A stretch of 64,000 bases of DNA from Aggregatilinea lenta (GTDB lineage Bacteria; Chloroflexota; Anaerolineae; Aggregatilineales; Aggregatilineaceae): positions 186,001-250,000 of the forward strand of contig NZ_BFCB01000002.1 in assembly GCF_003569045.1 (NCBI RefSeq), written 5' to 3'. Positions 31,404 to 62,833 of the stretch are shown here, in pieces (positions within the stretch are counted from its first letter, which is position 1; each line of letters starts with the position of its first letter). The position numbers were made by a program, and so were the translations under genes. Below the pieces are notes generated by a model. That model was not told the origin of the DNA. It saw only the letters and a program-made list of their open reading frames with translations, and made no database searches.

Positions 31404-32390
31404 CTACCCCTCGCCAAAGAGATCGCGCCATTCGTGGCCCGTCTCCTCCATCTTGGAGTCCGCTCCGGTTCGCCGCATCCGCTGCAAACGGGGCATTCCT
31501 AACTGCCACTCTTCCATCCAGCGGGCCGCGAACTCGCCCCGTTCGGTTTCTTCGAAAACCTTCTGGATTTCTTCGTAATCGATGACGCGGGGACCGGTCA
31601 TGCGCACGGCAAATTCGCAAGTGCGGCTGCTGCGTTCGGAGATGTAAGCCTCGATGCCGATCTCGTCCATGACGTCAATCACAGTACGCAGCGAGCGAAT
31701 CGCTTTGGCATAGGCGAAGAAGGGTGGATAGCCATTCTCGACCATGGTGTTGAACACGGCTTTCATCAGGTGAATGGTCCCGCCGTACAGCACCTGTTCC
31801 TCAAAGTTATCCCCCTCCGTTTCGTGCTGAAACGAAAGCTCGACGACGCCGACGCGGGTACTGCCAACCCCTTTGGCAATCGCCAGGGCGATGTCCAGCG
31901 CCTCGCCAGTCACATCCTGATCGACGCTGACCGCGCCATAAATACCGGAACCCTCCAGGAATTTCTTTCGCACCATGTGACCCGGCGAATTGGGCACAAA
32001 TAAGACGACGTTAACGTCCTTAGGCGGGACAATTGCGCCGTAAAGAATGTTGAACCCGTGGGCAAAACTGAGTGTGGCGTTCGGTTTCAGGTTGTTGCGG
32101 ATTTCCCGGTTGTATACGGCGGGCTGGGCAGGGTCGGCCAACAAAACGTGAATAACGTCAGCCCGGCCAGTGGCTTCGGCAATGGACATCACTTCAAAGC
32201 CATCTGCTTCGGCCTTATCCCAATCTGGGAAACGATCGCGCGGGCCAGCTCCCACGATGACATTGAGGCCGCTGTCACGCAGGCAAAGCGCCTGTGGGCC
32301 GCCCTGAATGCCATAGCCTAGCACGGCGACTACTTTGTCTTTGAGTACATCCAGGCTTACATCTTCGTCATGATAGACTTTGTTATCCAC
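31404..32390 (-). CDS. KARI-like NAD(P)H dehydrogenase lacking two metal ligands
   Basis: This 328-residue homologue of ketol-acid reductoisomerase starts at a GTG with AAGGAG 8 nt upstream. It keeps the Rossmann motif GYGIQG (25-30), AHGFNI, the PNSPGHMVR loop and the first metal pair Asp194/Glu198. In the C-terminal knotted domain the second metal pair (Glu and Glu of the normal YFEC.HE motif) is Lys229 and Ser233. Isomerisation needs both pairs, so it is unlikely to make branched-chain amino acid precursors. A comparable KARI-like gene has been proposed as ureidoglycolate dehydrogenase in purine clusters of other bacteria. The cluster position (between allE-like and carbamoyltransferase genes) supports oxidation of ureidoglycolate to oxalurate. 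Confidence 0.78.
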   Translation of the reverse strand: MDNKVYHDEDVSLDVLKDKVVAVLGYGIQGGPQALCLRDSGLNVIVGAGPRDRFPDWDKAEADGFEVMSIAEATGRADVIHVLLADPAQPAVYNREIRNNLKPNATLSFAHGFNILYGAIVPPKDVNVVLFVPNSPGHMVRKKFLEGSGIYGAVSVDQDVTGEALDIALAIAKGVGSTRVGVVELSFQHETEGDNFEEQVLYGGTIHLMKAVFNTMVENGYPPFFAYAKAIRSLRTVIDVMDEIGIEAYISERSSRTCEFAVRMTGPRVIDYEEIQKVFEETERGEFAARWMEEWQLGMPRLQRMRRTGADSKMEETGHEWRDLFGEG

Positions 32391-32617: not shown

Positions 32618-33397
32618 TTACAGCTCGTCGATGTAATCACGATTGACATCCTTGTAGAGGATGTAGCGTCCCGTCTCCCAACCCGTCGCCGCGAAATATT
32701 GCGGGCAGAACGGAGCCATGTAGATGTAATCGTCCTTTTTGACCTCAATCAAATCGCCATTGAGGTAGTAAAAGCCGCGCCCGTCCAGCATATAAAGGCC
32801 GTGTTCCATGATGTGCGATTCCACGAAGCCAAAATGCGTGCCCGGCTCGAAGATGAGCAGGTTGAAGGCCATGTCGTAGCCCAGCTCGTTGTCGTAAGGA
32901 ATCAGGTGCTTTTCGACATAGGTGTCTTCGGGAACTGCTTCCACGTCCTTCTCGTTGGTAATAATCGGATCTGGAATAGCAACACCCTCCAGCTCTATGT
33001 AACGGCGGCGCAGCCACAGCATCCGCGTGACAGCGTCACTGTTATTGACAAGCGTGAAAGGGTGGTCAGGCGGCAGCCAGATGGTTCCGCCCTGGATCAA
33101 TTCGTGGGTCTCTCCGGCCAGTTCAAACGTCGCTTCGCCTTCCAGGACAAACAGAAAATGCTGAAAGCCGTCATTGACCGGCTGTTTCGTGCCGCCGCCG
33201 GACTGGATGACCATTTCGTACTCCACGAATTTGGCACCCAGAGCCGGGGTGGTCATGATCTTGGCTTTGGTATCGCGCCAGTTAGGTAAAGTGCTGTTCA
33301 CCCGATCCGCTTGCGTCAGAATGATATAGCTGCCTGGCTTGGTAATGGACCGACTTCTTGATGTAATATCGGCATCAAGGTGTGCAAAATTCGCCAT
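32618..33397 (-). CDS. allE: (S)-ureidoglycine aminohydrolase-like bicupin (AllE-like)
   Basis: This 259-residue protein has two cupin domains. The first includes GFQHFLFVLEGEATFELAGE with WLPPDHPFTLVN, and the second FVESHIMEHGLYMLDGRGFYYL, followed by DYIYMAPFCPQYFAA. The second-domain H..E.H-type residues give the Mn site. AllE converts (S)-ureidoglycine to (S)-ureidoglycolate with release of ammonia. The length and double cupin match the family. An allantoinase gene lies in the same region. The ATG at 33397 follows a GAGGAG element. Confidence 0.88.
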   Translation of the reverse strand: MANFAHLDADITSRSRSITKPGSYIILTQADRVNSTLPNWRDTKAKIMTTPALGAKFVEYEMVIQSGGGTKQPVNDGFQHFLFVLEGEATFELAGETHELIQGGTIWLPPDHPFTLVNNSDAVTRMLWLRRRYIELEGVAIPDPIITNEKDVEAVPEDTYVEKHLIPYDNELGYDMAFNLLIFEPGTHFGFVESHIMEHGLYMLDGRGFYYLNGDLIEVKKDDYIYMAPFCPQYFAATGWETGRYILYKDVNRDYIDEL

Positions 33398-34834: not shown

Positions 34835-35788
34835 TTAGGCGACGATGGTCGTCCCCGTTTCGCCGTGCAGTGCTTTGGCGATGTTTTCGGGGTTCGTGAT
34901 GATCGCTTTCTTGCCACCCCGCTCCAGGAACCAGATCACGGCCTGAATCTTGGGGGCCATGCTGCCCTTAGCGAAATGCGTGCCTTCGGCAAGATACGCC
35001 TTGGCTTCTTCCAGCGTGATTTGGTCCAGATAGGTTTGGTCCGGCTTGCCGAAATTGAGGGCGACCTTTTCAACCGCCGTGCTGATGATCAGCAGCTCGG
35101 CACCGATTGCAGTGGCCAGCAGTGACGAGGCATAGTCCTTATCGATCACGGCGGCAACGCCTTCCAGTTTGCCAGACTCATCAGCCACAACGGGGATACC
35201 ACCACCGCCTACAGTGATGACGCAGGTACCGCCGCTGATCAGCTGTTTGATCGCAGGTTCTTCAACGACCCGCTTGGGCAAAGGAGAAGGCACAACCCGA
35301 CGCCAGCCGCGCCCGGCATCCTCAACGACATCCCACCCATCCTTGGCCTTCTTTTCCATCGCCTCGGCTTCATCCATAAAGGAGCCGATCGGCTTAATCG
35401 GGTTTTGAAAAGCAGGGTCGTTGCGATCCACTTCTACCTGGGTGACGACAGTGGCGACGGGCTTCTGGATGCCGCGTTCGAGGAATTCATTGTAGAGATT
35501 CTGCTGTAGGCCGTAGCCGGTCGCGCCCTGAGTATCCGCCCCGCAGACGTCCAGCGGCACTTCATGGACGCCTTCTACTTTGTAGGCAATTTCCGAGCGG
35601 CGCAGGACAAACCCAACCTGCGGGCCATTCCCGTGACCAATGGCGACCGTCCAGCCGTCTTCAACCATATTGGCGATATGGAAACTGGTTTCCTTGATCG
35701 CCTGATATTGATCCTCGATACTTTGGTGCGCTTTGCTTTTGATCAGGGAATTTCCCCCAATCGCGATTACCGCGATTTTCTCAGACAT
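34835..35788 (-). CDS. arcC: Carbamate kinase, catalytically complete
   Basis: This 317-residue enzyme makes ATP from carbamoyl phosphate and ADP. All family motifs are intact: AIGGNSLI, IGHGNGPQVG, PIKPIGSF, GRGWRRVVPSPLP, VGGGGIPVV, the catalytic VIDKDYAS, and KGSMAPKIQA. It lies downstream of the ATC-like carbamoyltransferase and upstream of the M20 gene. The natural role is to recover energy from carbamoyl phosphate released during ureide breakdown, as AllK/YqeA does. The ATG follows AAGGA by 7 nt. Confidence 0.93.
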   Translation of the reverse strand: MSEKIAVIAIGGNSLIKSKAHQSIEDQYQAIKETSFHIANMVEDGWTVAIGHGNGPQVGFVLRRSEIAYKVEGVHEVPLDVCGADTQGATGYGLQQNLYNEFLERGIQKPVATVVTQVEVDRNDPAFQNPIKPIGSFMDEAEAMEKKAKDGWDVVEDAGRGWRRVVPSPLPKRVVEEPAIKQLISGGTCVITVGGGGIPVVADESGKLEGVAAVIDKDYASSLLATAIGAELLIISTAVEKVALNFGKPDQTYLDQITLEEAKAYLAEGTHFAKGSMAPKIQAVIWFLERGGKKAIITNPENIAKALHGETGTTIVA

Positions 35789-35991: not shown

Positions 35992-36993
35992 TCATACACC
36001 CAAAATGCTGGCGACCAGCGCCATGCGAATGGAAACGCTGTAAGCAATCGCTTCAAAGTACTGCTGGTTGGGGGTGGTATCGATGCGCAAGTCCATCTCG
36101 CCAGCCCGGCGCGGCAGCGTGTGGGTCACGTGAACGATGCGACCCTCTTCCTGGCGAACTTTGTCCAGTGTTTCGAAGCGAACGTAATAGTCGTCCATGA
36201 TTTTCTTGAACGCGTCTGCCTCTGCCCCCTTGGGCGCGCTGCAACCGGGCAGATAAACCAGATCCATGCCAGCGATGAGTTCATTGAAACCATCTTGCGT
36301 GAGGTCAAATTCCTCTTTAACGTTGCCGCCGACCGCGGCCAATTTATCCATGACTTCTGGAGGTGTGCGGTTGGATTTGGGGCAGGCTAATGTGACATCA
36401 GCGCCCAACCGGGCCAGTCCGTAGGCCATAGAATGACCGGTACGAGCCGCGACCAGATCCGCACTGGCGATACAGACTTTGACGCCTTCTACCTTGTTGT
36501 GGGTACGCCACAGTGTGTACATATCCAGCAATGCCTGAGTAGGGTGTTCCCAGTGCCCAAACCCGCCGCTGATGACCGGCGCGTCAGAGTAAGTGACAGC
36601 GTCACGGGCATCCACGTCATTCGGATGGCGCAGCACGATGACATTGGCGTATTTCGAGACCACCTTTATCATGTCGGCCAGGCTTTCCTCTTTGGCAATT
36701 GAAGAGGAAACCATCGGCGTAGCTTCAGTGATCACCGCGCCACCGAGGCGATGCATCGCCGTTTCAAAGCTCATCCGGGTGCGGGTGCTGGGCTGGAAGA
36801 AAAGCGCAGCCATCACGTTACCCGTCAGCAACGGGACTGCCGAACGATTCCAAGGCTCCAGTGCACGAGCCAATTCGAACAAGCCATATATCTGGTCATT
36901 TGTCAGGTCGTTGATTGAAAGTAAACTCTTACCTTCATAATCAATATTGCGGACCAAAGAACGCACTGTCTTTATTGCGTTTTCATTTGCCAT
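35992..36993 (-). CDS. ATCase-like carbamoyltransferase (candidate ureidoglycine carbamoyltransferase)
   Basis: This 333-residue superfamily member has carbamoyl-phosphate motifs PSTRTR (68-73) and EHPTQALLDMYTL, the HPTQ form typical of aspartate carbamoyltransferase. The aspartate-binding motif of true PyrB (TRxQxER) is replaced by LPGCSAPKG, and HPLPR by THTLPRR, so aspartate is probably not the substrate. An ATCase paralogue acting on ureidoglycine (UGTCase) has been proposed for actinobacterial purine catabolism, and this gene fits: an adjacent carbamate kinase gene, allE-like and KARI-like genes nearby. Its promoter region holds 11-nt-period repeats. Confidence 0.8.
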   Translation of the reverse strand: MANENAIKTVRSLVRNIDYEGKSLLSINDLTNDQIYGLFELARALEPWNRSAVPLLTGNVMAALFFQPSTRTRMSFETAMHRLGGAVITEATPMVSSSIAKEESLADMIKVVSKYANVIVLRHPNDVDARDAVTYSDAPVISGGFGHWEHPTQALLDMYTLWRTHNKVEGVKVCIASADLVAARTGHSMAYGLARLGADVTLACPKSNRTPPEVMDKLAAVGGNVKEEFDLTQDGFNELIAGMDLVYLPGCSAPKGAEADAFKKIMDDYYVRFETLDKVRQEEGRIVHVTHTLPRRAGEMDLRIDTTPNQQYFEAIAYSVSIRMALVASILGV

Positions 36994-37744
36994 CTTATAT
37001 CTATCCTTGTTTTCCTGTGATTCAGAAAATCCAACACCTAACTAACATCCATTTTGCGCAGAGGCTGTTCGAAGGCTCCCCATCCGGCCTCAAAAGGCGG
37101 ATCTATTGGATGCCCCTCCCCCACAGGGCGGAATGACCGGGGAGCGGGGCAAATGGTCTCTCACAGAAACTGTGCAGCATGATGGAAGTTGTCGTTTTCT
37201 CACTTAGTGCAATCTAACATGAGAGGAGTAAGGGGTGCATAAGGCCGATATAAAGAATTCATAAGGATTATTGGAGGGGAAAAATGTGGCTTATTTTTTT
37301 GACCCGATTGAGCCGCTTGATCAGCGCGTAATTCCATTTTTTGAGGGAGAAAATCTCCTTTTCATATGCCTGTTACGCCATCAACCTTAAGGCCATACTG
37401 AGTTGAGGCCGCACTTTGATTTACGCATTAGCTGATATATACTACAGGGACTTATTCGAGGGGGTATGAAACAGTATGTTTCAGAATCTCGACAACAAAG
37501 AGTCATTGGTCGGTTAAGTACGTTCGTAACCGCCAGAACTTCGCTGCCACGACAGGCAAGTATGCAAAAACGCCCTCGATTCAGCCAGAGGTTTGGCACA
37601 CGGTAAGCCGCCACATCCAAAAATGATGCTTATACGAACCACTACGATATATGATGCCCGCCCACTCAATGATTCACAGTTATCTCACCCTTTTTACCCA
37701 AAAGCATTGGCGACGTACTTCATTGGCTTGGAGGTCAATAATTA
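36994..37744. other. 751-nt divergent regulatory gap
   Basis: No convincing gene is present. A 46-codon frame at about 37466-37606 (+) starts with ATG but has no recognisable content. The gap holds the 11-nt-period repeat array at 37228-37266 and AT-rich stretches upstream of the degenerate carbamate kinase gene. Confidence 0.5.
37228..37266 (+). promoter_or_regulatory. Site P1: four tandem ATAAGG-type repeats, 11-nt period
   Basis: GTAAGG (37228), ATAAGG (37239), ATAAAG (37250) and ATAAGG (37261) recur at exactly 11 nt and are followed by ATTATTGGAG. The same array occurs at 53294 and 61205, each time upstream of a minus-strand transcription unit. A TTAGAT at 37212-37217 could be the -10 box toward the ATCase-like gene. 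Direct repeats at 11 nt are the usual target of OmpR/PhoB-type regulators, and one is encoded 2.3 kb away. Confidence 0.75.
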
Positions 37745-38710
37745 ATGAGCGAAGGGATCGTTATTCTCGTTAATGGAGAAGTGCTTGCTAGCAGCCATGC
37801 GTCAAAGATAACCGAGCAAAAAAGTAGTGCGGAACAGCTTGCTACAGGGTTACTCCCGATCTTGTCTAGTGACCTGAATGTTGCCGTCATGCACGGCAAT
37901 AAACCGCAAGTCGGTTACGTCCTGTTCAGGTCCGAACTGGCGAGTCATGTTCTTCATCAAATCCCTTTGGACGTATGCGGAGCCGACACTCAGGGCGCGA
38001 CCGGGTATATGTTATCCCAGGCGATCTCAAATGCTTTGCGACAAAAAAACCACGAACGCGGCGTGATGTCCGTTGTTACACAAACAATCATCGATTCCGG
38101 CAAAGAACACTTCGAAGAACCGACTAAACAGATTGGACCCTGGTTGGATCATGAGAAGGCGGAGCAACGACGTCAGGTTTATGGATGGGATATCGTTGAA
38201 GAACCAGGATACGGATACCGGCGTGTTGTGGCGTCTCCTCCCCCAGAAGAAATTGTCGAAATCGAAGGCATTAGGCAGTTGTATCAGTCAGGGCTGATTG
38301 TAATCGCTGCCGGTGGAGGTGGCGTGCCCGTGATCGTCAACGAAAAAGGACTGCTGGAAGGAGCTGAAGCAGTCGTAGATACAGATTGGGTCGCTTGTGA
38401 GCTGGCGAAGCAGCTCGGCGCAAGAATATTGTTCATGATCGTCGAAGATGATACCAAGTTCATTATGTCGGGATTTGGCATCAATAACTATGTCCATTTG
38501 ACTCGTGAAGATTTGAGAAGAGTACTGGAAAACGCAGCATTCTCGTCGAATATGGTGATGCGGAAGCTGCATTCCGCCAATGCATATCTTCAGAGCGGGG
38601 GATCTCAGGTAATCATCACGACTTTAGAGAAACTTACGCCAACCCTCCAAAAGGAAAGCGGCTTGTGGCTTGGAGATCGTAATTCAACGGTTGATTTGTC
38701 CGCACTATAA
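37745..38710 (+). CDS. Carbamate kinase homologue with degenerate active site
   Basis: This 321-residue protein aligns over its full length with carbamate kinase but has lost key residues. GGN is VNG (9-11), HGNGPQ is HGNKPQ (50-55), GRGWR is GYGYR (155-159). The catalytic Lys of IDKD is Thr213 (VDTD), and GSMxPK is NMVMRK (269-274). Still present are Lys128 of the K.IGP motif and GGGGVPV (190-196). Phosphotransfer is therefore unlikely, but ligand binding may persist. It is followed by a degenerate histidine-kinase homologue and a response regulator and is clearly AT-richer than its neighbours. I infer a sensor for carbamoyl phosphate, ADP/ATP or a ureide. The start follows GGAGGT. Confidence 0.85.
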   Translation: MSEGIVILVNGEVLASSHASKITEQKSSAEQLATGLLPILSSDLNVAVMHGNKPQVGYVLFRSELASHVLHQIPLDVCGADTQGATGYMLSQAISNALRQKNHERGVMSVVTQTIIDSGKEHFEEPTKQIGPWLDHEKAEQRRQVYGWDIVEEPGYGYRRVVASPPPEEIVEIEGIRQLYQSGLIVIAAGGGGVPVIVNEKGLLEGAEAVVDTDWVACELAKQLGARILFMIVEDDTKFIMSGFGINNYVHLTREDLRRVLENAAFSSNMVMRKLHSANAYLQSGGSQVIITTLEKLTPTLQKESGLWLGDRNSTVDLSAL

Positions 38711-38715
38711 ATGCT

Positions 38716-39528
38716 ATGGGTGACACCGCTTTCTATTCTGGACGCAACCCAGAGGATACGCTTATGGAAGATACCCGAAGCTCAGGCATGGACTCAGATC
38801 CGAATTTGCACCGGGCAAATGAACGTCTGCGCATAACCAACCAGATGTTATGGTCGTTACTCGCCGACATTTCAAAAAAGATGCAGAGTTCTTCAGCAGC
38901 TATAAAGGCTTCGGTATCGAGTTTGCTGGGGTATGATATTGTTTTGGGCATGGCCGCCCAGCATGAGCTTTTGGAAATCATTGAAAGCAGTACAGACCAA
39001 GTGTCAAAAAACATCATGCTTTTGACCTTGGTATCGAAAATGGCAACTGATACCTTTATAATCAATCCGGAGCCAACTGAAGTTCCCGAAATACTCTCAT
39101 CCGTAAATGGAACGGTCGCCAAAAACTATCCGGATCTGCCGCTTGACTTGAATGTCCAGACGCCAGGAAAACCGGCGTACGTCGATTATGAATATCTATC
39201 CATTGCCCTTGTGATGCTGTGTGAGCTGATCATACAAATGCAGCCATCACCACGCCCGCTAAGTATTGCTGCTGTAGAATCAAAAGATCACTGGGCTGTT
39301 GATATTGGCGAAGTTAATCAGGAAGTGCTTGACACGTTGTTGAAGGCTTCCGCCAGCGGATCCGATGAACTTCTCCAGGATGCCCATCTGCTCCCAACGC
39401 GAAGGCTTCAACTTTATGTCGTATATGAAATACTTGAGCGACTATCCATTAAAATCTCAACACTGTCGTCGGATACAGACGAACCGGTATATATTCGACT
39501 GATGATACCAGTTGTAAATATAAATTAG
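38716..39528 (+). CDS. Pseudo-histidine kinase, KdpD-like HisKA/HATPase remnant
   Basis: This 270-residue soluble protein begins 5 nt after the previous gene; an ATG at 38764 with GAGG upstream is an alternative start. Residues ~40-115 resemble a HisKA dimerisation domain of the KdpD kind (SLLADISKKMQSSSAAIKAS). The expected S-H-[DE]-L-R-T-P-L is S-K-K-M-Q-S-S-S, so the phospho-accepting His is Lys54. The C-terminal half keeps the HATPase length and strand pattern, but the N-box, DxGxG and GxGLGL boxes are absent (LCELIIQM, VDIGEV, LQLYVVYEILERL). It is probably a signalling scaffold linking its neighbours. Confidence 0.7.
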   Translation: MGDTAFYSGRNPEDTLMEDTRSSGMDSDPNLHRANERLRITNQMLWSLLADISKKMQSSSAAIKASVSSLLGYDIVLGMAAQHELLEIIESSTDQVSKNIMLLTLVSKMATDTFIINPEPTEVPEILSSVNGTVAKNYPDLPLDLNVQTPGKPAYVDYEYLSIALVMLCELIIQMQPSPRPLSIAAVESKDHWAVDIGEVNQEVLDTLLKASASGSDELLQDAHLLPTRRLQLYVVYEILERLSIKISTLSSDTDEPVYIRLMIPVVNIN

Positions 39529-39559
39529 CGCATGAACCGCATCGCAGGTAGATCTCATT

Positions 39560-40273
39560 GTGCTTATGACGACCAATAACATTCTCCTCATCAGTGATGA
39601 ACTAAACTTGCTGCGGACGCTGCGGCGTAATTTGCTTAGTCGGGGCTATGAAGTCGTAGTAGCCTGGGATGAAAAAGATATTTCCTATTTCGTTGATAAC
39701 CTGAATGCCTGCCTATTTATTATCAATCCGGACTTTGAAGTACTTGAAATTAACGGATTAGATATCGTTCGAAAAATCCGAGAGCGCAGTAATGCGCCAA
39801 TCATTGTCCTGTCTGCCGTTGGCTCGGAAGACTTGAAAATCCAGGCCATGGATCTGGGCGCTGATGACTATCTGGTTATGCCTTTTGGCATGGGGGAATT
39901 TTTAGCCAGAGTCCGTGTCGCGCTGCGCAGATGGTCTTCACAAACATCCGCGATTACTCAGGAAAACAGGATTATTCTCTCTGGAAAACTAATCATCAAT
40001 CCGGATACGCGGCAAGTCATAATCAATGGCGAAACCATTCATCTCACGCCATTGGAGTATGACTTGCTGTATTATCTGGCAAAAAATCAAGGAAGAGTCA
40101 TTGCTCACCGCGAATTACTGCGAGAGATTTGGGGGCCAGAATATGGCGATGAGCGAGAGTATTTGCGCGTTTTTGTTTCCCAAATCCGCAAAAAAGTTGA
40201 AGAAGACCCCGCCCGCCCAGCTTACATACTCACTGAACCTCGAATTGGATATAGATTCGCCGATAAAGAATAG
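39560..40273 (+). CDS. OmpR/KdpE-type response regulator with atypical receiver
   Basis: This 237-residue regulator starts at a GTG at 39560; an ATG at 39566 is an alternative. The receiver has the acidic residues in ISDE (13-14), a candidate phospho-acceptor Asp58 in FIINPDFEV, and LSA at 85-86. The invariant Lys is Met107 (DYLVMPFG). The C-terminal winged helix is intact (LIINPDTRQVII, LTPLEYDLLYYLAKNQG, EYLRVFVSQIRKKVEED, GYRFA) and matches KdpE best. Loss of Lys usually goes with phosphorylation-independent signalling. It is the obvious candidate to bind the 11-nt-period repeats at 37.23, 53.29 and 61.21 kb. Confidence 0.85.
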   Translation: MLMTTNNILLISDELNLLRTLRRNLLSRGYEVVVAWDEKDISYFVDNLNACLFIINPDFEVLEINGLDIVRKIRERSNAPIIVLSAVGSEDLKIQAMDLGADDYLVMPFGMGEFLARVRVALRRWSSQTSAITQENRIILSGKLIINPDTRQVIINGETIHLTPLEYDLLYYLAKNQGRVIAHRELLREIWGPEYGDEREYLRVFVSQIRKKVEEDPARPAYILTEPRIGYRFADKE

Positions 40274-40477: not shown

Positions 40478-41857
40478 TCAACCCTTGCTTGGCGCACTGG
40501 TGGCCCTTTTTAGCAAACGACCATGGCCGGGCTGGGCGACAATCTTCCCGTCCTCGAAAACCTTTTTGCCCCGCACAATCGTCAACTCGACTTGTCCTTT
40601 GAACGTATAACCGACATAGGCACTCTGTTGGTGCTGGCTAAACAAATCGTCGGCGGCCAGTGTCCAGGTCTTGTCCAAATCAACGATGGTGATGTCGGCA
40701 TCGGAACCGGGTAGCAGCGCACCTTTTTGAGGATACAAGCCAAATATGCGGGCTGGATTAGCGCCCATCATTTTAACCAATCGCGATAACGGCAGGCCGC
40801 GGTTATGATAGCCCTCGGTCAACATCGCTGGCAGCATGGCCTGAACACCCGTAATACCTCCCCAGGCTTCCCAGATATTGCCGTTACCCTTGATTTTGTC
40901 GGCCTTGGGACAGGGCGAATGATCAGAAGCAATTGTGTCTACCATGCCCGCCAGGACGCAATCCCATAACTTTTCTACCTCGTCGCGTTCGCGGAGTGGT
41001 GGGGCGCATTTAGCGTCCGGGCCAATGCGGACAAAGTCATCATTGTCGAAGAAAAGGTAATGCGGGCACGTTTCCACCGTGACGTGGACACCTTGCTGTT
41101 TGGCCTCTGCAACAGCATAGATACCATCAGCGGTGGTCGTATGAACGATATGGAGATTGCCGCCGGTTACTTTGGCCCAGTAGATGGCGCGTTTGTCAGC
41201 CTCCAGCTCGGCAAAGGGCGGGCGTGATTCTGACCATGCGCGGCGGTCGGTGCGGCCAGTAGCTTGAATTTGTTGGGCCAAAAAGCGGGTGACATATTCG
41301 CTTTCTGCATGGACGCCAACGACATTGCCCAGTTCGCGTGATTTGACTAACCCACCATACAGGATGTCATCATTGATACGGCGAAAGTCCACGCCGCTTT
41401 CGCTCATGAAGCCTTTGAAGGCAACGACGCCCTCTTCGTGGAGGTCTTCCAACTCGTCCAGGTTATTGTCGACCAGCCCACCCCAGTGAGCATAATCGAC
41501 GACAGATTGGTTCTTGACCGCTTCACGTTTATGGAGAAGCTTGGCGCGGTCGATGGAAGGCGGCGTGGCGTTAAGCGGCATCTCTATGAAAGTGGTTACG
41601 CCGCCCGCCGCCGCCGCCATGCTGCCGGCTTGATAGCCTTCCCAATGCTCGCGGCCCGGCTCGTTGAAGTGGACGTGATCATCCACAATCCCCGGTAGGA
41701 TAGCTTTGCCCTGAGCATCTATGGTTTCCTGGGCAGCAATATCCCTGTTTCCGGCTACTAACTCAACAATTTTCCCATCGGCGATGACGACGCCGCCATG
41801 AAATGTGGTTTCTTCAGTAACGACCAATCCGTTTTTGACGTACAAATCTACGCCCAT
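40478..41857 (-). CDS. allB: Allantoinase
   Basis: This 459-residue cyclic amidohydrolase opens the hydantoin ring of allantoin to give allantoate. The allantoinase form of the metal-binding motif is present (DDHVHFNEPGREHWEGY, His61 and His63), followed by AAAAGGVTTFIEMPLNATPP. Carboxylated Lys148 lies in VVAFKGFM, with His183 (GVHAES), His239 (HIVHTTT) and Asp311 (ASDHSPC). 'MPLN..P' and the WEG segment separate it from dihydropyrimidinase. A strong AGGAGG precedes the ATG. It is the most secure marker that the region handles allantoin. Confidence 0.93.
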   Translation of the reverse strand: MGVDLYVKNGLVVTEETTFHGGVVIADGKIVELVAGNRDIAAQETIDAQGKAILPGIVDDHVHFNEPGREHWEGYQAGSMAAAAGGVTTFIEMPLNATPPSIDRAKLLHKREAVKNQSVVDYAHWGGLVDNNLDELEDLHEEGVVAFKGFMSESGVDFRRINDDILYGGLVKSRELGNVVGVHAESEYVTRFLAQQIQATGRTDRRAWSESRPPFAELEADKRAIYWAKVTGGNLHIVHTTTADGIYAVAEAKQQGVHVTVETCPHYLFFDNDDFVRIGPDAKCAPPLRERDEVEKLWDCVLAGMVDTIASDHSPCPKADKIKGNGNIWEAWGGITGVQAMLPAMLTEGYHNRGLPLSRLVKMMGANPARIFGLYPQKGALLPGSDADITIVDLDKTWTLAADDLFSQHQQSAYVGYTFKGQVELTIVRGKKVFEDGKIVAQPGHGRLLKRATSAPSKG

Positions 41858-49819: not shown

Positions 49820-52180
49820 CTACTTGCGTTCAAAACCACCATCAATGTAGCTTTGGACATCAACTGCTGCGGGTGGAATGAAGTCGTCGTTCAGTTCAGG
49901 TACATACCACTGCAGGAAATCGCTGTTGTCGTAGGGTTCAGCGCCATCCATCAACGTACGGAGGCTGATGAACTTGGTGACTGGCTTGCCCTGCAGAATG
50001 TCAACTGCCGCTTGCAGGCAATACCGTGACATTGAGGGCGGATCCGGCGAGCCAACGAATTCGTAGTTATATTCTTCGGCCAAACGGAGGAACCCATTGG
50101 GCACGTTGACCATGGCAAACTTGGGCGGTTCAACACTGGCATCTTCGAAAGCCAGGGCCGCACCCAGAGCCATTTCACCACCGCCGGCCCACACCCCATC
50201 AATTTCCGGGTGGGCGGCCATGATGGCTTCCATCTTCTGCTTCGCCGTAGCGATGTTCCACTGTGCGTATTCCGTGGCGATGATCTCAATGCCGGGGTAC
50301 TGGCTGAGGGCGTCCAACGCTGCCGCCTGCCAGGTTTCGGTGGAGTCCACACCGGCGATACCGTTGAAGACCACGACTTTTCCTTCGCCGCCCATCAGTT
50401 CGGCCAGACCAACGCCGGACTTGTAGGCAACTTCGTAGAAGTCAACGTCGATACGGGTGGTGAAATCGTCACCTTCGATCCCGTTGGCGCACAGGATGAC
50501 CGGGATTCCTTCCTGGATAGCGCGACGGATGACGGTGGTAGAGGCGGCGCGACCCAGCGGCTCGACGACAATCGCGTCCGGCTGCTGCACGATGAAGTTT
50601 TCGATGTCGCTGATCTGCTGGTTGGCATCGTTGGTGACGGCGGTGAGCACCGGCTGCGCCAGGATGCCTTCTTCTACCAGTTGATCGCCGTACGCGGAGA
50701 TGGTGACGTTGTAGGTGTTGCCCCAGCCGTTGCTGGCGTCCTGCTGCGACACGGCGATGACGTACGGGCCGTCTTTCTTGTACTGGGACGTATCCACTTC
50801 GGTGGCCATGTCGGCCAGGATAGCCTGCGAGTAGTCAGAGCTGAGCGCGGCTGCATTAACCTCATCACTGTTGAGGTAGGCCATGAGATCCGACGTCGGC
50901 GCAGACTGTGCTGATTCGGTAGCCTGCGTGATCGGTGCGCCTTCGATGGGGCCATCGCGGTCATCCCAACCGGGGACCGGCCACACCACTTCAGCCGCAG
51001 CCAGGTCTTCCGGCCACACAGCAACCATCTGGCCGTTCTGCCACTGCGCGATCACCGTGGCAGCCTGTTCCAACCGGCCTTTTTCGTCGAAGGAAACTTC
51101 GGGCCACTGGAAGCCCCATTTGCCCTCACCGTCGGTGAACGTCGTGGTGCGCAGCGTTTCGGCCAGCACCTTGGGGTCGGTGGAGCAAGCGGCTTCCAGA
51201 GCATCGGCCAGGAGCCACGTAGAAGCATAGGTCGTGTTGTACGTGCCGCCCAGATCCTGCCCGGTGTATTCCTTGAAGCGCGCCTTCAGGTCTTCGCTGA
51301 CGTTCAGGGCGCTCACAGGGGCAAAGTCCTGGGTGATGATGAGGCCGTCCGCCACATCCGCGCCTGCTTCGTCGAGGAAGAAGGTGCTGCCGAAACCGGA
51401 ACCGAGGGAGATCATCCCCATCTTGGGATAGTAGCCCTGTTCCTTGGCCTGCTTGGCGAGCTGGGGAGCCTGATTGTTCCCGAGCACGAACCACACATCC
51501 GGGTCCGCGGACTTGACGCGCAGGATGGTGTCGGTGAAGTCCTGAGCGTTGCCTTCGTAGGTGAAGCTCGCCAGCAGCTCGATGCCTTCGGTTTCGATGC
51601 CGTGCTTCCAGGCCTCTTCAACTTCAGCGCCAAAGGTGAAGTTGGGGACCGTGATCACAGCCGTTTGCGCGCCCATCGACTTCGCCCAGGCGACGTCGTC
51701 AGCACCCCAACCCTGCAGGGTGGATACCGTCTGGAACACGTACTTCAGACCGCGATCGGTCACCGTACCGTCGAGGGCGTTGGGGACGATATAGGGCACT
51801 TCGTGCTGCTCGGCGATTTCCGAAGCGGGCAGAGTCGTGCCGCTAAGAGCGGAGCCCATGACCGCCACAACGCCTTCCTGCGTGATGAGGCGTTCCATTT
51901 CGGAGTTACCGGCTGCGGCCTTGCCTTCGGTGTCGCCCTTTACCAGTTCGAGCTGGGCGCCACCCAGGCAGGCGATACCGCCAGCCGCGTTGATTTCATC
52001 AATGGCCATCTGGTGTGACAGGATATAAGGATCGCCAGCCCAACCGGCATCGGCGCCGGTCAACGGATACAGAGCGCCAACTTTGATGACCTGAGGATCT
52101 TGTGCGGCAACGCTGCCGGTGAAGGGCAGAACCATGCTGGCGATCAGTAATAATGCAATGAGGCTTCGTTTTTGCAACAT
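49820..52180 (-). CDS. Two-headed substrate-binding protein (LivK-type fused to RbsB-type)
   Basis: This 786-residue exported protein is translated from the ATG at 52180, directly after AGGAGG; a longer frame starts inside this ribosome site. After a signal peptide (RSLIALLLIASMVLPFTGSVAAQ) come two complete periplasmic binding modules. Residues ~30-415 are a Leu/Ile/Val-binding (Peripla_BP_6) type: IKVGALYPLTGADAGWAGD, LVKGDTEGKAAAGNSEMERL, DADFGTT-like AVITVPNFTFGAEV. Residues ~470-740 are a ribose-binding (Peripla_BP_4) type: GPYVIAVSQQDASNGWGNTY, QQISDIENFIVQQPDAIVVEP. Normal proteins carry one module (330-400 residues). It heads genes for an RbsA/C/C transporter and a LivHMGF transporter, so one protein may serve both. 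Confidence 0.9.
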   Translation of the reverse strand: MLQKRSLIALLLIASMVLPFTGSVAAQDPQVIKVGALYPLTGADAGWAGDPYILSHQMAIDEINAAGGIACLGGAQLELVKGDTEGKAAAGNSEMERLITQEGVVAVMGSALSGTTLPASEIAEQHEVPYIVPNALDGTVTDRGLKYVFQTVSTLQGWGADDVAWAKSMGAQTAVITVPNFTFGAEVEEAWKHGIETEGIELLASFTYEGNAQDFTDTILRVKSADPDVWFVLGNNQAPQLAKQAKEQGYYPKMGMISLGSGFGSTFFLDEAGADVADGLIITQDFAPVSALNVSEDLKARFKEYTGQDLGGTYNTTYASTWLLADALEAACSTDPKVLAETLRTTTFTDGEGKWGFQWPEVSFDEKGRLEQAATVIAQWQNGQMVAVWPEDLAAAEVVWPVPGWDDRDGPIEGAPITQATESAQSAPTSDLMAYLNSDEVNAAALSSDYSQAILADMATEVDTSQYKKDGPYVIAVSQQDASNGWGNTYNVTISAYGDQLVEEGILAQPVLTAVTNDANQQISDIENFIVQQPDAIVVEPLGRAASTTVIRRAIQEGIPVILCANGIEGDDFTTRIDVDFYEVAYKSGVGLAELMGGEGKVVVFNGIAGVDSTETWQAAALDALSQYPGIEIIATEYAQWNIATAKQKMEAIMAAHPEIDGVWAGGGEMALGAALAFEDASVEPPKFAMVNVPNGFLRLAEEYNYEFVGSPDPPSMSRYCLQAAVDILQGKPVTKFISLRTLMDGAEPYDNSDFLQWYVPELNDDFIPPAAVDVQSYIDGGFERK

Positions 52181-52480
52181 TTTTCCTCCTGTTAAGGAAA
52201 GCAAAATAACATGCAGTTGTGACGTGCTATTAAAGAAGATTTGAATGCGACTCCTTTTTTACTAGTGTCCTTGTTAAGGACCGCCAGATGAAAACGGGTG
52301 ACACGCGATGAAACACTCTGCACGAAATGGCGACAATGGAGCTGTGATGCAGGCTTTGAACAGACTATCAAAATCAAATGCAATCGATGAGACTCAATGC
52401 AGTTGCGTAAAACAACCGCCGCTGGTTATCTATGGTGATTTCGGCAAGTCAAACGAAACGTTCCGTGTCCTTGTCAAACC
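52181..52480. other. 300-nt promoter gap of the transport operon
   Basis: No gene is seen. The gap separates the racemase stop from the binding-protein start. I saw no 11-nt-period repeats like those at P1-P3, so this operon may have a different promoter or be read through from upstream. Confidence 0.4.
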
Positions 52481-53224
52481 CTAACGATAAACAGTGCCGA
52501 AAACTTCGGGCAAACCAATAATTGGCTTATGTCCAGGTTGAGCATAGGCGCGCTTTTTACTGGTGGTAACGCCGCAGCCGATCAAACCTTCCAGCAATTT
52601 CAAAGCACAAACGACGCCGTCCAAAACGGGAACACCTAAAGCAGCCTGTAATTCCTTGTCCATGCCGGCCATTCCGGCACAGCCCAGGCAAATTACTTCG
52701 GCGTCATCTTCGTCGATAGCCTGCCGGGCAGTCTTCAAGATCAGGTTGGTCGTTTCTGCCGGGCTGCTTTCTTCGAGTGCCAGGACGGGCATACGGGTGG
52801 AACGGACCGAAGCGCAGCGGTCAGCCAATCCGTAGTGGCGTACCGCGTCTCGGAGCAGCGGTTCCCATTCTTCATTGGTGGTGACCACGCTGAAGCTGTA
52901 GCCCAACATACAGGCGACGTACATGGATGCTTCGGCAATGCCTAAAACGGGTTTCTCGGTAATTTCGCGCAGGGCATAAATAGTCGGGTGGTCGCTGTAA
53001 CAGGCAATCACAAAGGCATCGAAATCATTCATGTGGTTGATAGCCAGTTCGAGTGTTCCGGGGGAGCTGAGCAATTCGTCGTAAATACCTTCAATAGACC
53101 GGGGGCCAGCCGTGGGATTCATCGCAACAGCCGTTGTTCCTGGAAAGGCATAGCGATCAGCGATGGCCTGCACTCGCTTGGTGAATTCTTCCGATGTGTT
53201 GGGATTGATCAGCAGTATACGCAT
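52481..53224 (-). CDS. Asp/Glu/hydantoin racemase family protein, probable allantoin racemase
   Basis: The ATG at 53224 (MRILLINPNTSEEF) gives 247 residues. The two catalytic cysteines of the family are in FVIACYSDHP and VICLGCAGMAGM, with the start motif INPNTS typical of allantoin and hydantoin racemases. Allantoin formed from urate is racemised so that stereospecific enzymes can use all of it. Together with allB this is the best reading. Hydantoin racemase is the alternative. Repeat array P2 lies about 70 nt upstream. Confidence 0.8.
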   Translation of the reverse strand: MRILLINPNTSEEFTKRVQAIADRYAFPGTTAVAMNPTAGPRSIEGIYDELLSSPGTLELAINHMNDFDAFVIACYSDHPTIYALREITEKPVLGIAEASMYVACMLGYSFSVVTTNEEWEPLLRDAVRHYGLADRCASVRSTRMPVLALEESSPAETTNLILKTARQAIDEDDAEVICLGCAGMAGMDKELQAALGVPVLDGVVCALKLLEGLIGCGVTTSKKRAYAQPGHKPIIGLPEVFGTVYR

Positions 53225-53293
53225 TGACTCTTTGTGCTCCACCGCTCTTGTGCCCTTATGTGTGAACTGTATCACAGGGAGGATTTTGGATAC

Positions 53294-53321
53294 ATAAGGG
53301 GGCTATAAGGAATTCATAAAG
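53294..53321 (+). promoter_or_regulatory. Site P2: three ATAAGG-type repeats, 11-nt period, upstream of the racemase gene
   Basis: ATAAGG (53294), ATAAGG (53305) and ATAAAG (53316) recur at exactly 11 nt, with the same internal AATTC spacer as in P1. The array is in the short gap between the amidohydrolase stop and the racemase start and has the same orientation relative to its downstream minus-strand gene as P1 and P3. Confidence 0.72.
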
Positions 53322-53358
53322 ATTGTCATTTATGAAGCAACGTGTTGCCTGGACAGGC

Positions 53359-61006: not shown

Positions 61007-61484
61007 GTTTACCTTACCTGATCAACTGCCCGGGTTACGAGGCGTGGGCGTAATCCTTGTCTAATTACAGAGCTGCAGCGACTGTGAAGGTGTCCGGCTC
61101 CCTATAAGCTGCCGTTTTCCACCAACGTATCGGCGGCATGGGCAACGCTCCGATTCACAGATCGGCGGAGCCTATCGCTACTTGTGAAATTTATCATGGG
61201 GCCGATAAGGGACATATAAGCAAGGCATAAAGAAAATATAAGGATTATGGAGCGGGTATTTTCCCAGGGAAACAATCCATCTGCGAACTTCGGACTGGGC
61301 AGTAAATATCCACCTGTGATGGATGTTCCAGTTCGTAACCAACGGGACATTTCGAGATGTGCTAAAACAATGGAGCAAGCAAGCGTTATTCTCTTGACTT
61401 TGAGGGAAAAAGAACTGGATCACCTCTTAAGAGGCTGAAGCAAGCAGTGCCCCTTAACGCCCCCAGGGGCTTCGAACTCGCGGA
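61007..61484. other. Regulatory gap upstream of fixC
   Basis: This 478-nt gap holds repeat array P3 (61205-61243) and a perfect 12-nt palindrome CCTCTTAAGAGG at 61423-61434. No convincing gene is seen in it. Confidence 0.45.
61205..61243 (+). promoter_or_regulatory. Site P3: four ATAAGG-type repeats, 11-nt period, upstream of fixC
   Basis: ATAAGG (61205), ATAAGC (61216), ATAAAG (61227) and ATAAGG (61238) recur at exactly 11 nt and are followed by ATTATGGAG, nearly the same flank as P1. A GATAAAT on the minus strand at 61189-61195 is a possible -10 box toward fixC. P3 would control the fixC-fixX-etfB-etfA-DAO-glyA run. Confidence 0.75.
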
Positions 61485-61969: not shown

Positions 61970-61990
61970 AATGTTCATTATTTGAACATT
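61970..61990. promoter_or_regulatory. IclR-type operator
   Basis: AATGTTCA-TTATT-TGAACATT is a perfect dyad with 8-nt arms, as is common for IclR-family repressors. It lies between the promoter and the chosen start codon, which suggests autorepression. Confidence 0.65.
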
Positions 61991-62020
61991 CGACCCCGTG
62001 CAGGTGAAAGGGCTTGTGTA

Positions 62021-62833
62021 GTGTCCAAATCCCCAGATAGGAGCGCGACGGTGACGAAAGCGTTGGCTGTGCTAGAAATAGTCGCCAACGCACCGCGCGG
62101 TCTCCAGCTGTCCGAAGTATCCGCTGAACTCGGCTTTGATCGCAGCACAACCTATCGCCTTCTCAACACTCTGATAGCTGCTGGTTATATCGTGCGCGAC
62201 GGTTCGAAGCGCTACAACTTGAGCTACCGGTTGGTCACCCTCAGCCGCCATCTCCTGGCGGATAACGAACGCTCACGTGCGAGCCGCGAGATCATGGAGT
62301 GGATCGCCCATGAAACCGGCGAGACGATCCACCTGTCTGCCCTGGACGGCATGGAAGAAGTTCTCATCCAGAGAGTCAAGGGGACTCAATTCCTCATCGT
62401 CGATTTTCAGATCGGAGAGCGTTTCAGCCTTCACTGCACATCGGTTGGCAAAGTCCTCCTGGCCTATCAGGATGAGCGCTTAATTGAGCAGGTGATTGCG
62501 GCAGGCCTGCCCCAAATGGCCTCGAACACCATCACGGATCCGGATCATTTGCGCCAGGAGCTGCGTCATATTCGGAGCACGGGGTATGCCATTGATGATC
62601 ACGAGTTGGCCGATCACATGCGCTGCATCTCCGTGCCCGTGTTTGAGGCCGATGGCCGGGTGATGGTCGGGTTGAGCATCTCAGGGCCAGATACACGCTT
62701 GTCCCTCGAAAAACTTGAGGAGTACAAGGTTCCGCTCTCCGAGGGTGCTCGTGAGTTATCGGAACGGCTGGGAGGCGCACCGAACTCCACCGCCACCTCC
62801 TTCATGAACTTGGATAGGAATGGTCACTCATAG
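62021..62833 (+). CDS. IclR family transcriptional regulator
   Basis: The GTG at 62021 (MSKSPDRSATVTKALAVLEIV) is preferred, giving 270 residues, because AAAGGG precedes it and the apparent earlier TTG start lies inside the operator dyad. The N-terminal winged helix is LQLSEVSAELGFDRSTTYRLLNTL. The IclR effector domain follows with SLHCTSVGKVLLAY, GYAIDDHELADHMRCISVPVF and VMVGLSISGP. Allantoin genes in enteric bacteria are controlled by an IclR member (AllR), but this gene lies beyond relic C and next to an aldehyde dehydrogenase gene, so it may control that gene instead. Confidence 0.88.
   Translation: MSKSPDRSATVTKALAVLEIVANAPRGLQLSEVSAELGFDRSTTYRLLNTLIAAGYIVRDGSKRYNLSYRLVTLSRHLLADNERSRASREIMEWIAHETGETIHLSALDGMEEVLIQRVKGTQFLIVDFQIGERFSLHCTSVGKVLLAYQDERLIEQVIAAGLPQMASNTITDPDHLRQELRHIRSTGYAIDDHELADHMRCISVPVFEADGRVMVGLSISGPDTRLSLEKLEEYKVPLSEGARELSERLGGAPNSTATSFMNLDRNGHS

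What the first reader, a model, noticed from the sequence alone, without database searches (positions are those of the whole stretch)
37745..40273. Putative pseudo-enzyme signalling module: degenerate carbamate kinase, pseudo-histidine kinase and atypical OmpR regulator
Three consecutive same-strand genes each carry the fold of a known family but have lost activity motifs. The carbamate kinase homologue has VDTD in place of VDKD, VNG for GGN and NMVMRK for GSMxPK. The KdpD-like protein has Lys54 where the phospho-His should be and lacks ATP-binding boxes. The KdpE-like receiver has Met107 for the invariant Lys. An intact carbamate kinase is encoded 2 kb away, so the degenerate copy is not needed for metabolism. 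The block is clearly AT-richer than its surroundings. Inference: the dead kinase senses carbamoyl phosphate, nucleotide or a ureide and signals through the scaffold to the regulator.
Basis: partly seen in the sequence, partly recalled or inferred. Interest (0 to 1): 0.88.

Follow-up and report, generated by a model that had tools for sequence, protein, structure and literature searches.

The report
Dead-enzyme switch for ureide genes
A bacterium carries three neighbouring genes whose proteins look like enzymes of signalling and metabolism but have lost residues needed for catalysis; related genomes keep the trio, and matching DNA control sites stand before genes that break down purine-derived nitrogen compounds, so the trio is probably a gene switch that works without passing on phosphate.

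Summary
Three same-strand genes at 37745-40273 encode carbamate-kinase-like, histidine-kinase-like and KdpE-like proteins, all lacking catalytic residues. The set recurs in three other genomes (two with the three genes together, one with the CK-like gene on another contig). Pseudo-CKs and pseudo-regulators each form one supported clade, so this is not decay. All four genomes carry at least parts of the same ureide cluster. New here: an operator of four 11-bp repeats resembling KdpE half-sites, then exactly 8 bp, then TGNTA, stands before 11 cluster genes in these genomes. A matrix trained without the window finds three sites in it, before three ureide gene runs, and nothing scoring 20 or more in 1.59 Mb of the same genome. 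The cluster contig of a genome where no module was found has none. Best reading: a phosphorylation-independent, KdpE-derived activator of the ureide regulon, gated by a pseudo-histidine kinase and a pseudo-carbamate kinase that keeps most carbamoyl-phosphate-side residues. Module and regulon are well supported by sequence; ligand, contacts and binding are inferred; nothing was tested at the bench.

The parts
37745..38710 (+). pseudo-carbamate kinase (321 aa): most carbamoyl-phosphate-side side chains kept, most nucleotide-side ones lost
   Evidence: AlphaFold2 model pLDDT 80 (residues 54-77 under 50), best Foldseek match P. furiosus CK 1e19
38716..39528 (+). pseudo-histidine kinase (270 aa): helical hairpin and CA-like domain without phospho-His, N box or G boxes
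39560..40273 (+). KdpE-like OmpR/PhoB-family regulator with pseudo-receiver (Ser12, Asn56, Met107) and winged-helix domain; true start may be ATG 39566
37228..37267 (-). operator A: four 11-bp repeats; 8 bp later TG-N-TAGATT at 37211-37219; faces CTase2, CK, M20 and ureidoglycine aminohydrolase genes
53283..53322 (-). operator B: same architecture (fourth repeat imperfect), TG-N-TACAGT at 53266-53274; faces the racemase gene and the binding-protein and ABC-transporter genes after it; the racemase ORF as listed starts inside the -10, so its true start is probably the ATG near 53224
61205..61244 (-). operator C: same architecture, TG-N-TAAATT at 61188-61196; faces the FixC-like, EtfBA, FAD oxidase, glyA and amidohydrolase genes
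36994..37744 (.). divergent intergenic region between the ureide genes and the module
35992..36993 (-). carbamoyltransferase CTase2, first gene behind operator A; used as marker of this ureide cluster
34835..35788 (-). intact carbamate kinase
   Evidence: TIGR00746 376 bits, cut-off 358
32618..33397 (-). (S)-ureidoglycine aminohydrolase
   Evidence: TIGR03214 263 bits, cut-off 200
40478..41857 (-). allantoinase
   Evidence: TIGR03178 523 bits, cut-off 358

Best explanation
The three genes encode a phosphotransfer-free descendant of a KdpD/KdpE-type two-component system that controls a ureide (allantoin) degradation regulon. The regulator keeps the KdpE-type DNA-recognition residues and binds, probably as two dimers, to four 11-bp direct repeats at a fixed distance from an extended -10 element, activating the catabolic genes. 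Because its phosphorylation site, first metal-binding acid and switch lysine are gone, its activity must be set another way. The most likely way is contact with the pseudo-histidine kinase, whose state is set by the pseudo-carbamate kinase. The latter keeps most side chains that hold carbamoyl phosphate and has lost most of those that hold and use the nucleotide, so it probably senses carbamoyl phosphate, the expected product of the pathway's carbamoyltransferases, or a close mimic. Well supported by sequence: the module, its loss of catalytic residues, its conservation, the operator and its placement. Inferred: that this regulator binds the operator, the sign of regulation, the contacts and the ligand.
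For: Conservation: all three genes together in L081 and L082, the HK/RR pair in L080, and a fifth pseudo-CK in the L080 genome. One clade for 5 pseudo-CKs against 20 true CKs (100/99) and for 4 pseudo-RRs against 78 (100/100). Third codon positions differ more than first and second in all 22 module pairs compared. The four pseudo-RRs have S/G/G/N at the first acidic position (78 of 78 controls D or E) and M at the Lys position (77 of 78 controls K, 1 Q). H is K/R/R/S in the four pseudo-HKs. CK audit over 5 pseudo-CKs: side chains N55, K131, R163, V213 kept in 18 of 20 cells; eight nucleotide-side residues kept in 10 of 40 (roles from PMC3659122, sections 9-11 read). Linkage: CTase2 occurs (E <= 1e-90) in 3 of 396 class genomes, two of which, one being the window's own, carry the module; the other two module genomes carry it too. 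Operator: 11 sites in four genomes, chosen by repeats alone, all 11 with exactly 8 bp to TGNTA; pattern match 3 in the window against 0 in 100 shuffles; a matrix from 8 non-window sites scores the window sites 66.6, 62.4 and 57.3, with nothing at 20 or more in 1,586,000 other bases of the genome; nothing at 10 or more in the 19,663-bp cluster contig of G162, where no module was found. E. coli KdpE half-sites are TTTATA and TTTACA, 5 bp apart (PMC3264566, passages); KdpE's R193, R200 and T215 fall on residues kept in all four pseudo-RRs.
Against: No experiment. Assignment of the operator to this regulator is by family, co-occurrence and a resembling site near one related RR (L084). Two further CK residues do not fit a fully kept carbamoyl-phosphate site: G56 of the oxyanion hole is K/K/K/A/G and D157 is E/E/E/I/V; counting both there gives 19 of 30 kept. 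In G214 the pseudo-CK lies beside the true CK on another contig from the HK/RR pair, and it is a different subtype that keeps K216, K278, S274 and M275 and has lost R163. Cluster genes are about 78-91% identical between window and G214, but the pseudo-RR only 60%, the pseudo-HK 33% and the pseudo-CK 36%, so the module's history differs from the cluster's or it evolves much faster. The pseudo-HKs are poorly conserved (31-39% identity). The amidohydrolase gene before the L081 module matched no window cluster gene. An IclR-family regulator (61982-62833) also lies in the window. The ligand is untested.
Confidence: 0.65

Rival explanations
1. The regulator is constitutively active and controlled only by its own level; the pseudo-HK and pseudo-CK tune it weakly or act elsewhere.
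For: In L082 the module follows the racemase gene behind an operator, allowing positive autoregulation. Expression-level control of a constitutively active pseudo-receiver is discussed in PMC12632262 (section 19 read). The pseudo-HK is poorly conserved.
Against: Each of the 4 genomes with the HK/RR pair also has a pseudo-CK; a purely constitutive factor needs neither partner.
Confidence: 0.15
2. The pseudo-CK is a regulatory subunit of the true carbamate kinase or a carbamoyltransferase, and the pseudo-HK/RR pair is a separate switch.
For: In G214 the pseudo-CK lies between CTase2 and the true CK, away from the HK/RR pair.
Against: In three genomes a pseudo-CK is directly upstream of the pseudo-HK (gaps 5 and 26 bp, and an overlap); G214 carries the other pseudo-CK subtype.
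Confidence: 0.12
3. The operators belong to another OmpR-family regulator (for example a canonical KdpE paralogue in this genome) and the module is unrelated to them.
For: The genome has KdpD-like kinases and RRs elsewhere, and the strongest related site outside the cluster is at a locus with a phosphorylatable KdpE-like RR (L084).
Against: No site at 20 or more in the own-genome stretches scanned, which include a locus that I read as KdpD/KdpE-like (L258); sites occur with the module in four genomes and are absent from the G162 cluster contig.
Confidence: 0.05
4. The genes are decaying remnants.
For: Loss of catalytic motifs, faster divergence than the cluster enzymes, and AT-rich composition.
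Against: Open frames in all four genomes (the L082 regulator runs off its contig end after 234 residues), one clade each for CK and RR, shared replacements, codon-position pattern of selected genes, kept DNA-binding residues, and matching operators.
Confidence: 0.02

Closest known systems
[quoted passage not shown]
   Same: KdpE is the best NCBIfam model for the regulator (179 bits) and KdpE is among its closest PDB chains; half-sites at 11-bp period with TTTAT/TTTAC cores; KdpE R193/R200/T215 equivalents kept
   Different: 179 bits against a KdpE cut-off of 325; phosphorylation site, first acid and Lys lost; four half-sites instead of two; kinase partner dead, with no sensor domain found; target is a ureide cluster
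Bacterial atypical response regulators / pseudo-receivers (reviewed in PMC12632262)
   Same: Lacks conserved receiver active-site residues; output domain kept
   Different: Paired in an operon with a pseudo-histidine kinase and a pseudo-metabolic kinase; [quoted passage not shown]
Pseudo-histidine kinases DivL and RetS
   Same: Histidine-kinase fold used without normal phosphotransfer (DivL called pseudo-HK in the abstract of PMC9430884; RetS role recalled); both appear among the fold matches of the model
   Different: Here no sensor domain is recognised, the ATP-binding boxes are gone, and the partner regulator is dead too
Carbamate kinase (ArcC, AllK, YqeA; gene names recalled except AllK)
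   Same: Fold, most side chains around carbamoyl phosphate, 38-39% identity to the two true CKs of the same genome
   Different: Below every CK cut-off; most nucleotide and phosphotransfer residues replaced
AllS/AllR/ArcA control of allantoin genes in E. coli (PMC12535856, passages)
   Same: Control of a ureide pathway that ends in carbamoyltransferase and carbamate kinase; ArcA is also an OmpR-family regulator (recalled)
   Different: A LysR-type activator, a repressor and a phosphorylatable ArcA; no pseudo-enzyme module
Gal3p of yeast, a dead galactokinase paralogue used as sensor (recalled, no call)
   Same: Metabolic kinase copy turned into a regulator of its own pathway
   Different: Acts on a eukaryotic repressor, not through a two-component-derived pair

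Membership tests
Pseudo-receiver / atypical response regulator (definition in PMC12632262) | receiver-like domain lacking one or more of five conserved active-site residues | tested here: met
   first acid S/G/G/N, phospho-Asp Asn, Lys to Met in the four members; second acid and Ser kept
OmpR/PhoB-family transcription factor | receiver plus C-terminal winged helix | tested here: met
   Response_reg 50.5 bits and Trans_reg_C 78.9 bits, both over cut-off
OmpR/PhoB-family transcription factor | binds direct repeats | not testable with these tools
   operator repeats found; binding itself untested
KdpE (NF007820 equivalog) | score over the curated cut-off | tested here: not met
   179 against 325
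Active sensor histidine kinase | phospho-His and N/G boxes | tested here: not met
   K/R/R/S at the His position and no boxes in four members; no HisKA or HATPase_c hit (window protein only)
Pseudo-histidine kinase | DHp/CA fold lacking one or more kinase functions | tested here: met
   predicted fold only: model pLDDT 82.5; top match HK853, E 4e-12, probability 1.00
Pseudo-histidine kinase | integration into a signalling network | not testable with these tools
   operon and co-occurrence only
Carbamate kinase | curated model cut-off | tested here: not met
   233 against 358 (TIGR00746) and 240 against 266 (PRK12352)
Carbamate kinase | K209, D210 and K271 (E. faecalis) all present | tested here: not met
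   at least one is lost in each of 5 pseudo-CKs
Carbamoyl-phosphate sensor | binds carbamoyl phosphate and responds to it | not testable with these tools
   18 of 20 side-chain cells kept, or 19 of 30 with G56 and D157 counted; no binding data

The most novel reading that the evidence does not exclude
A complete signalling chain built from three dead enzymes: a carbamate kinase turned into a carbamoyl-phosphate sensor drives a pseudo-histidine kinase, which allosterically sets a pseudo-receiver KdpE descendant that activates the ureide regulon through a four-repeat operator, with no phosphotransfer at any step.
Probability: 0.4. Interest if true: 0.93.

Novelty: new variant of a known kind. 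Interest (0 to 1): 0.86.

Why it matters
How bacterial pseudo-receivers are switched is called a mystery in a 2025 review, whose characterised cases are mostly orphans (PMC12632262, abstract and section 5). Here a pseudo-receiver comes with its likely upstream partners, a likely operator and a defined metabolic regulon, so phosphorylation-independent control could be tested with three small proteins and one 65-bp DNA. If the ligand is carbamoyl phosphate, it would be a dedicated sensor for a labile, energy-rich metabolite; one full-text search with narrow phrases for such sensors returned no paper, which is weak evidence of absence.

Tried and rejected
Decay or import: rejected from orthologues, single clades, codon positions, and a third-position composition tilt repeated in the other loci. 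Alternative register: the regulator's Asp58 could align to the phospho-Asp position in the window protein alone; rejected because L080, L081 and L082 align Asn there and the four align without gaps in that stretch. Even so the first acid and the Lys are lost.

A first shuffle test of shared repeats crashed; it was replaced. The pattern was written with the window sites in view; the matrices were trained without them. No operator scoring 15 or more was found in L081 (contig starts inside the gene before the module), L234, L236 or L238; L227 has only 33 bp before CTase2. A 44-bp matrix gave one hit over its threshold of 30.3 in 1.26 Mb of 78 control loci (L084, 38.6). The 65-bp matrix gave two control hits at 20 or more, both L084 (27.2 and 25.2). 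The L083 hit (21.3) lies inside an ORF and is taken as chance. The broad profile searches returned mostly ordinary kinases. Of 89 loci have an H-box motif somewhere in the best frame. Of the 7 without it, 3 are the module itself (window twice, G214 once), 3 keep the His in a variant motif on reading, and 1 (L179, from G399) has Asn there. Lower rows without a locus were not examined, and those searches score only some candidates per genome. AlphaFold complexes could not be run.

Literature: searches listed no paper whose title or shown abstract describes a dead carbamate kinase in signalling or this module; I saw listings and abstract starts, and of four papers (PMC12632262, PMC3659122, PMC3264566, PMC12535856) the sections or passages cited. 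The library lacks most subscription journals.
Full report
What is there. The three ORFs are as described. The first is carbamate-kinase-like but under every curated CK cut-off; the second has no Pfam hit above cut-off; the third has a receiver and a winged helix, and KdpE is its best NCBIfam model at about half the cut-off. AlphaFold2 models of the first two (pLDDT 80.0, with residues 54-77 under 50, and 82.5) match carbamate kinases (best 1e19, E 3.9e-32) and histidine kinases (HK853 at the top, DivL and RetS further down) in the PDB.

Are the enzymes dead? For the CK-like protein I used residue roles from the Giardia and E. faecalis structures (PMC3659122, sections 9-11 read). Over five pseudo-CKs, four carbamoyl-phosphate-side side chains (N55, K131, R163, V213 of Giardia) are kept in 18 of 20 cells; eight nucleotide-side ones (N14, K216, D217, T236, Y245, S274, M275, K278) in 10 of 40. 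Two more residues count against a fully kept site: G56, whose backbone helps form the oxyanion hole, is K/K/K/A/G, and D157 of the auxiliary domain is E/E/E/I/V; with both included the first figure is 19 of 30. Each protein lacks at least one of K216, D217 and K278; the paper reports that D210N in E. faecalis (equivalent to D217) cut kcat over 1000-fold. These cells are not independent, since the proteins are related. The HK-like proteins have K, R, R and S at the phospho-His and no N or G boxes against 10 true kinases. The regulators have lost the first acid, the phospho-Asp and the Lys in all four members, while 78 related RRs keep an acid at the first position (61 D, 17 E) and 77 of 78 keep Lys. 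The automatic column count for the phospho-Asp failed because of the register problem; resolve it.

Is it conserved? A scan of genome contigs with the regulator alignment kept 80 loci. Two of them, L081 (titled Anaerolinea thermophila MAG) and L082 (titled Chloroflexi MAG), carry CK-like, HK-like and RR genes in the same order; L082 has two CK-like genes in tandem, and its RR runs off the contig end after 234 residues. A class sample of 396 genomes gave one further HK-like gene of this kind (G214, L010/L080) with its RR beside it. G214 has its own pseudo-CK on another contig, between CTase2 and the true CK. The five pseudo-CKs form one clade against 20 true CKs (100/99) and the four pseudo-RRs one clade against 78 (100/100); the tree tool warns of long branches in the CK tree. 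Third codon positions differ more than first and second in all 22 module pairs compared.

Is it tied to ureide genes? The window cluster holds allantoinase, ureidoglycine aminohydrolase, two carbamoyltransferases, CK, an M20 hydrolase, transporters, and glycine and serine enzymes. CTase2 occurs at E <= 1e-90 in 3 of 396 class genomes: G000 and G214, which have the module, and G162 (82% complete), in which no HK-like gene and no pseudo-CK was found; the RR was not sought there. The genomes of L081 and L082 also have CTase2 (74% and 73%). So 4 of the 5 CTase2 genomes I looked at carry the module. Ureidoglycine aminohydrolase was found in 3 of the 4 module genomes; it was missed in G880, a 2.6-Mb assembly. 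Two neighbours of the module elsewhere come from the same cluster: racemase (68% to the window's) in L082 and gcvT (84%) in L080. The amidohydrolase gene before the L081 module matched no window cluster gene, and its NCBIfam hits, like those of the molybdo-oxidoreductase genes near the L082 module, stay below cut-off.

The operator. Comparing intergenic regions showed tandem 11-bp repeats with core YCYTTAY. Eleven sites are now seen: three in the window, five in G214, two in G879 and one in G880 (chosen by repeat score alone). Each has four repeats, the fourth often imperfect, then exactly 8 bp, then TGNTA and a -10-like hexamer. In the window they face CTase2, the racemase and the FixC-like gene, the heads of three minus-strand gene runs; whether each run is one transcript is not known. 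The pattern with up to 2 mismatches matches 3 times in the window and never in 100 shuffles. A 65-bp matrix from the 8 non-window sites scores the window sites 66.6, 62.4 and 57.3 (lowest leave-one-out score 38.6). It finds nothing at 20 or more in 1,586,000 other bases of the same genome (80 stretches), two hits at 20 or more in 1,263,769 bases of 78 control loci (both L084), and nothing at 10 or more in the G162 cluster contig. L084 holds a phosphorylatable KdpE-like RR in the same weakly supported group as the pseudo clade; its repeats lie upstream of an 803-aa frame without an NCBIfam hit, the HK and the RR, which fits a shared DNA preference. E. coli KdpE uses TTTATA and TTTACA 5 bp apart (PMC3264566, passages). 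Its DNA-contact residues R193, R200 and T215 map to window R203, R210 and T225 (my reading of the alignment), which all four pseudo-RRs keep.

How it most likely works. In E. coli's oxamate branch a carbamoyltransferase releases carbamoyl phosphate (PMC11326118 abstract start), and carbamate kinase turns it and ADP into ATP (PMC3659122 abstract). A CK copy that can hold carbamoyl phosphate but not use it is a natural sensor. It would act on the pseudo-HK, and that on the pseudo-receiver, which activates from the four-repeat operator. Known here from sequence: gene order, lost residues, conservation, operator. Inferred: binding, sign, contacts, ligand. The last repeat lies where a -35 element would be, as in Pho-box type activation (recalled).

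What does not fit well. Window and G214 cluster enzymes are about 78-91% identical, but pseudo-RR 60%, pseudo-HK 33% and pseudo-CK 36%. Either the module evolves much faster or it was replaced independently. In G214 the HK/RR pair lies near an integrase-like gene (named from its sequence, not by a model) and apart from the pseudo-CK. These points keep the rival readings alive.

Comparison with the known. It meets the definition of a pseudo-receiver and fails those of KdpE, of an active histidine kinase and of carbamate kinase (see membership test). E. coli's allantoin regulators are of other kinds (PMC12535856, passages). I found no description of such a module in searches.

Noticed in passing
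window 49820-52204: A 794-aa solute-binding protein that, on reading, looks like two fused periplasmic binding proteins (a branched-chain-amino-acid type followed by a sugar type), next to genes for two kinds of ABC transporter; relatives 86% in G214 and 73% in G879.
   Followed up: no
window 31404-32390: Ketol-acid-reductoisomerase-like protein inside the ureide cluster, kept at 91% in G214 and 77% in G879. It is over the TIGR00465 ilvC cut-off (293 against 226) and just under that of PRK05479 (335 against 336), so it may be an ordinary IlvC or a ureide enzyme.
   Followed up: partly
L179 (G399, same family as the window genome): A 630-aa histidine-kinase-like frame with Asn at the His position; another possible pseudo-kinase, not close to the module.
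   Followed up: no
L233 and L237 (G214) against the window: The ureide cluster is about 78-91% identical across genomes of different families while the module is far more diverged, suggesting separate histories.
   Followed up: partly
L084:4160-4716: Similar 11-bp repeats upstream of an unnamed 803-aa frame, a histidine kinase and a phosphorylatable KdpE-like regulator in an Acidobacteria MAG; no TGNTA at the same spacing.
   Followed up: partly
window 61982-62833: IclR-family regulator divergent from the FixC-like gene run; its NCBIfam hits are all below cut-off, the best being PcaR/PcaU, BhcR and KdgR.
   Followed up: partly
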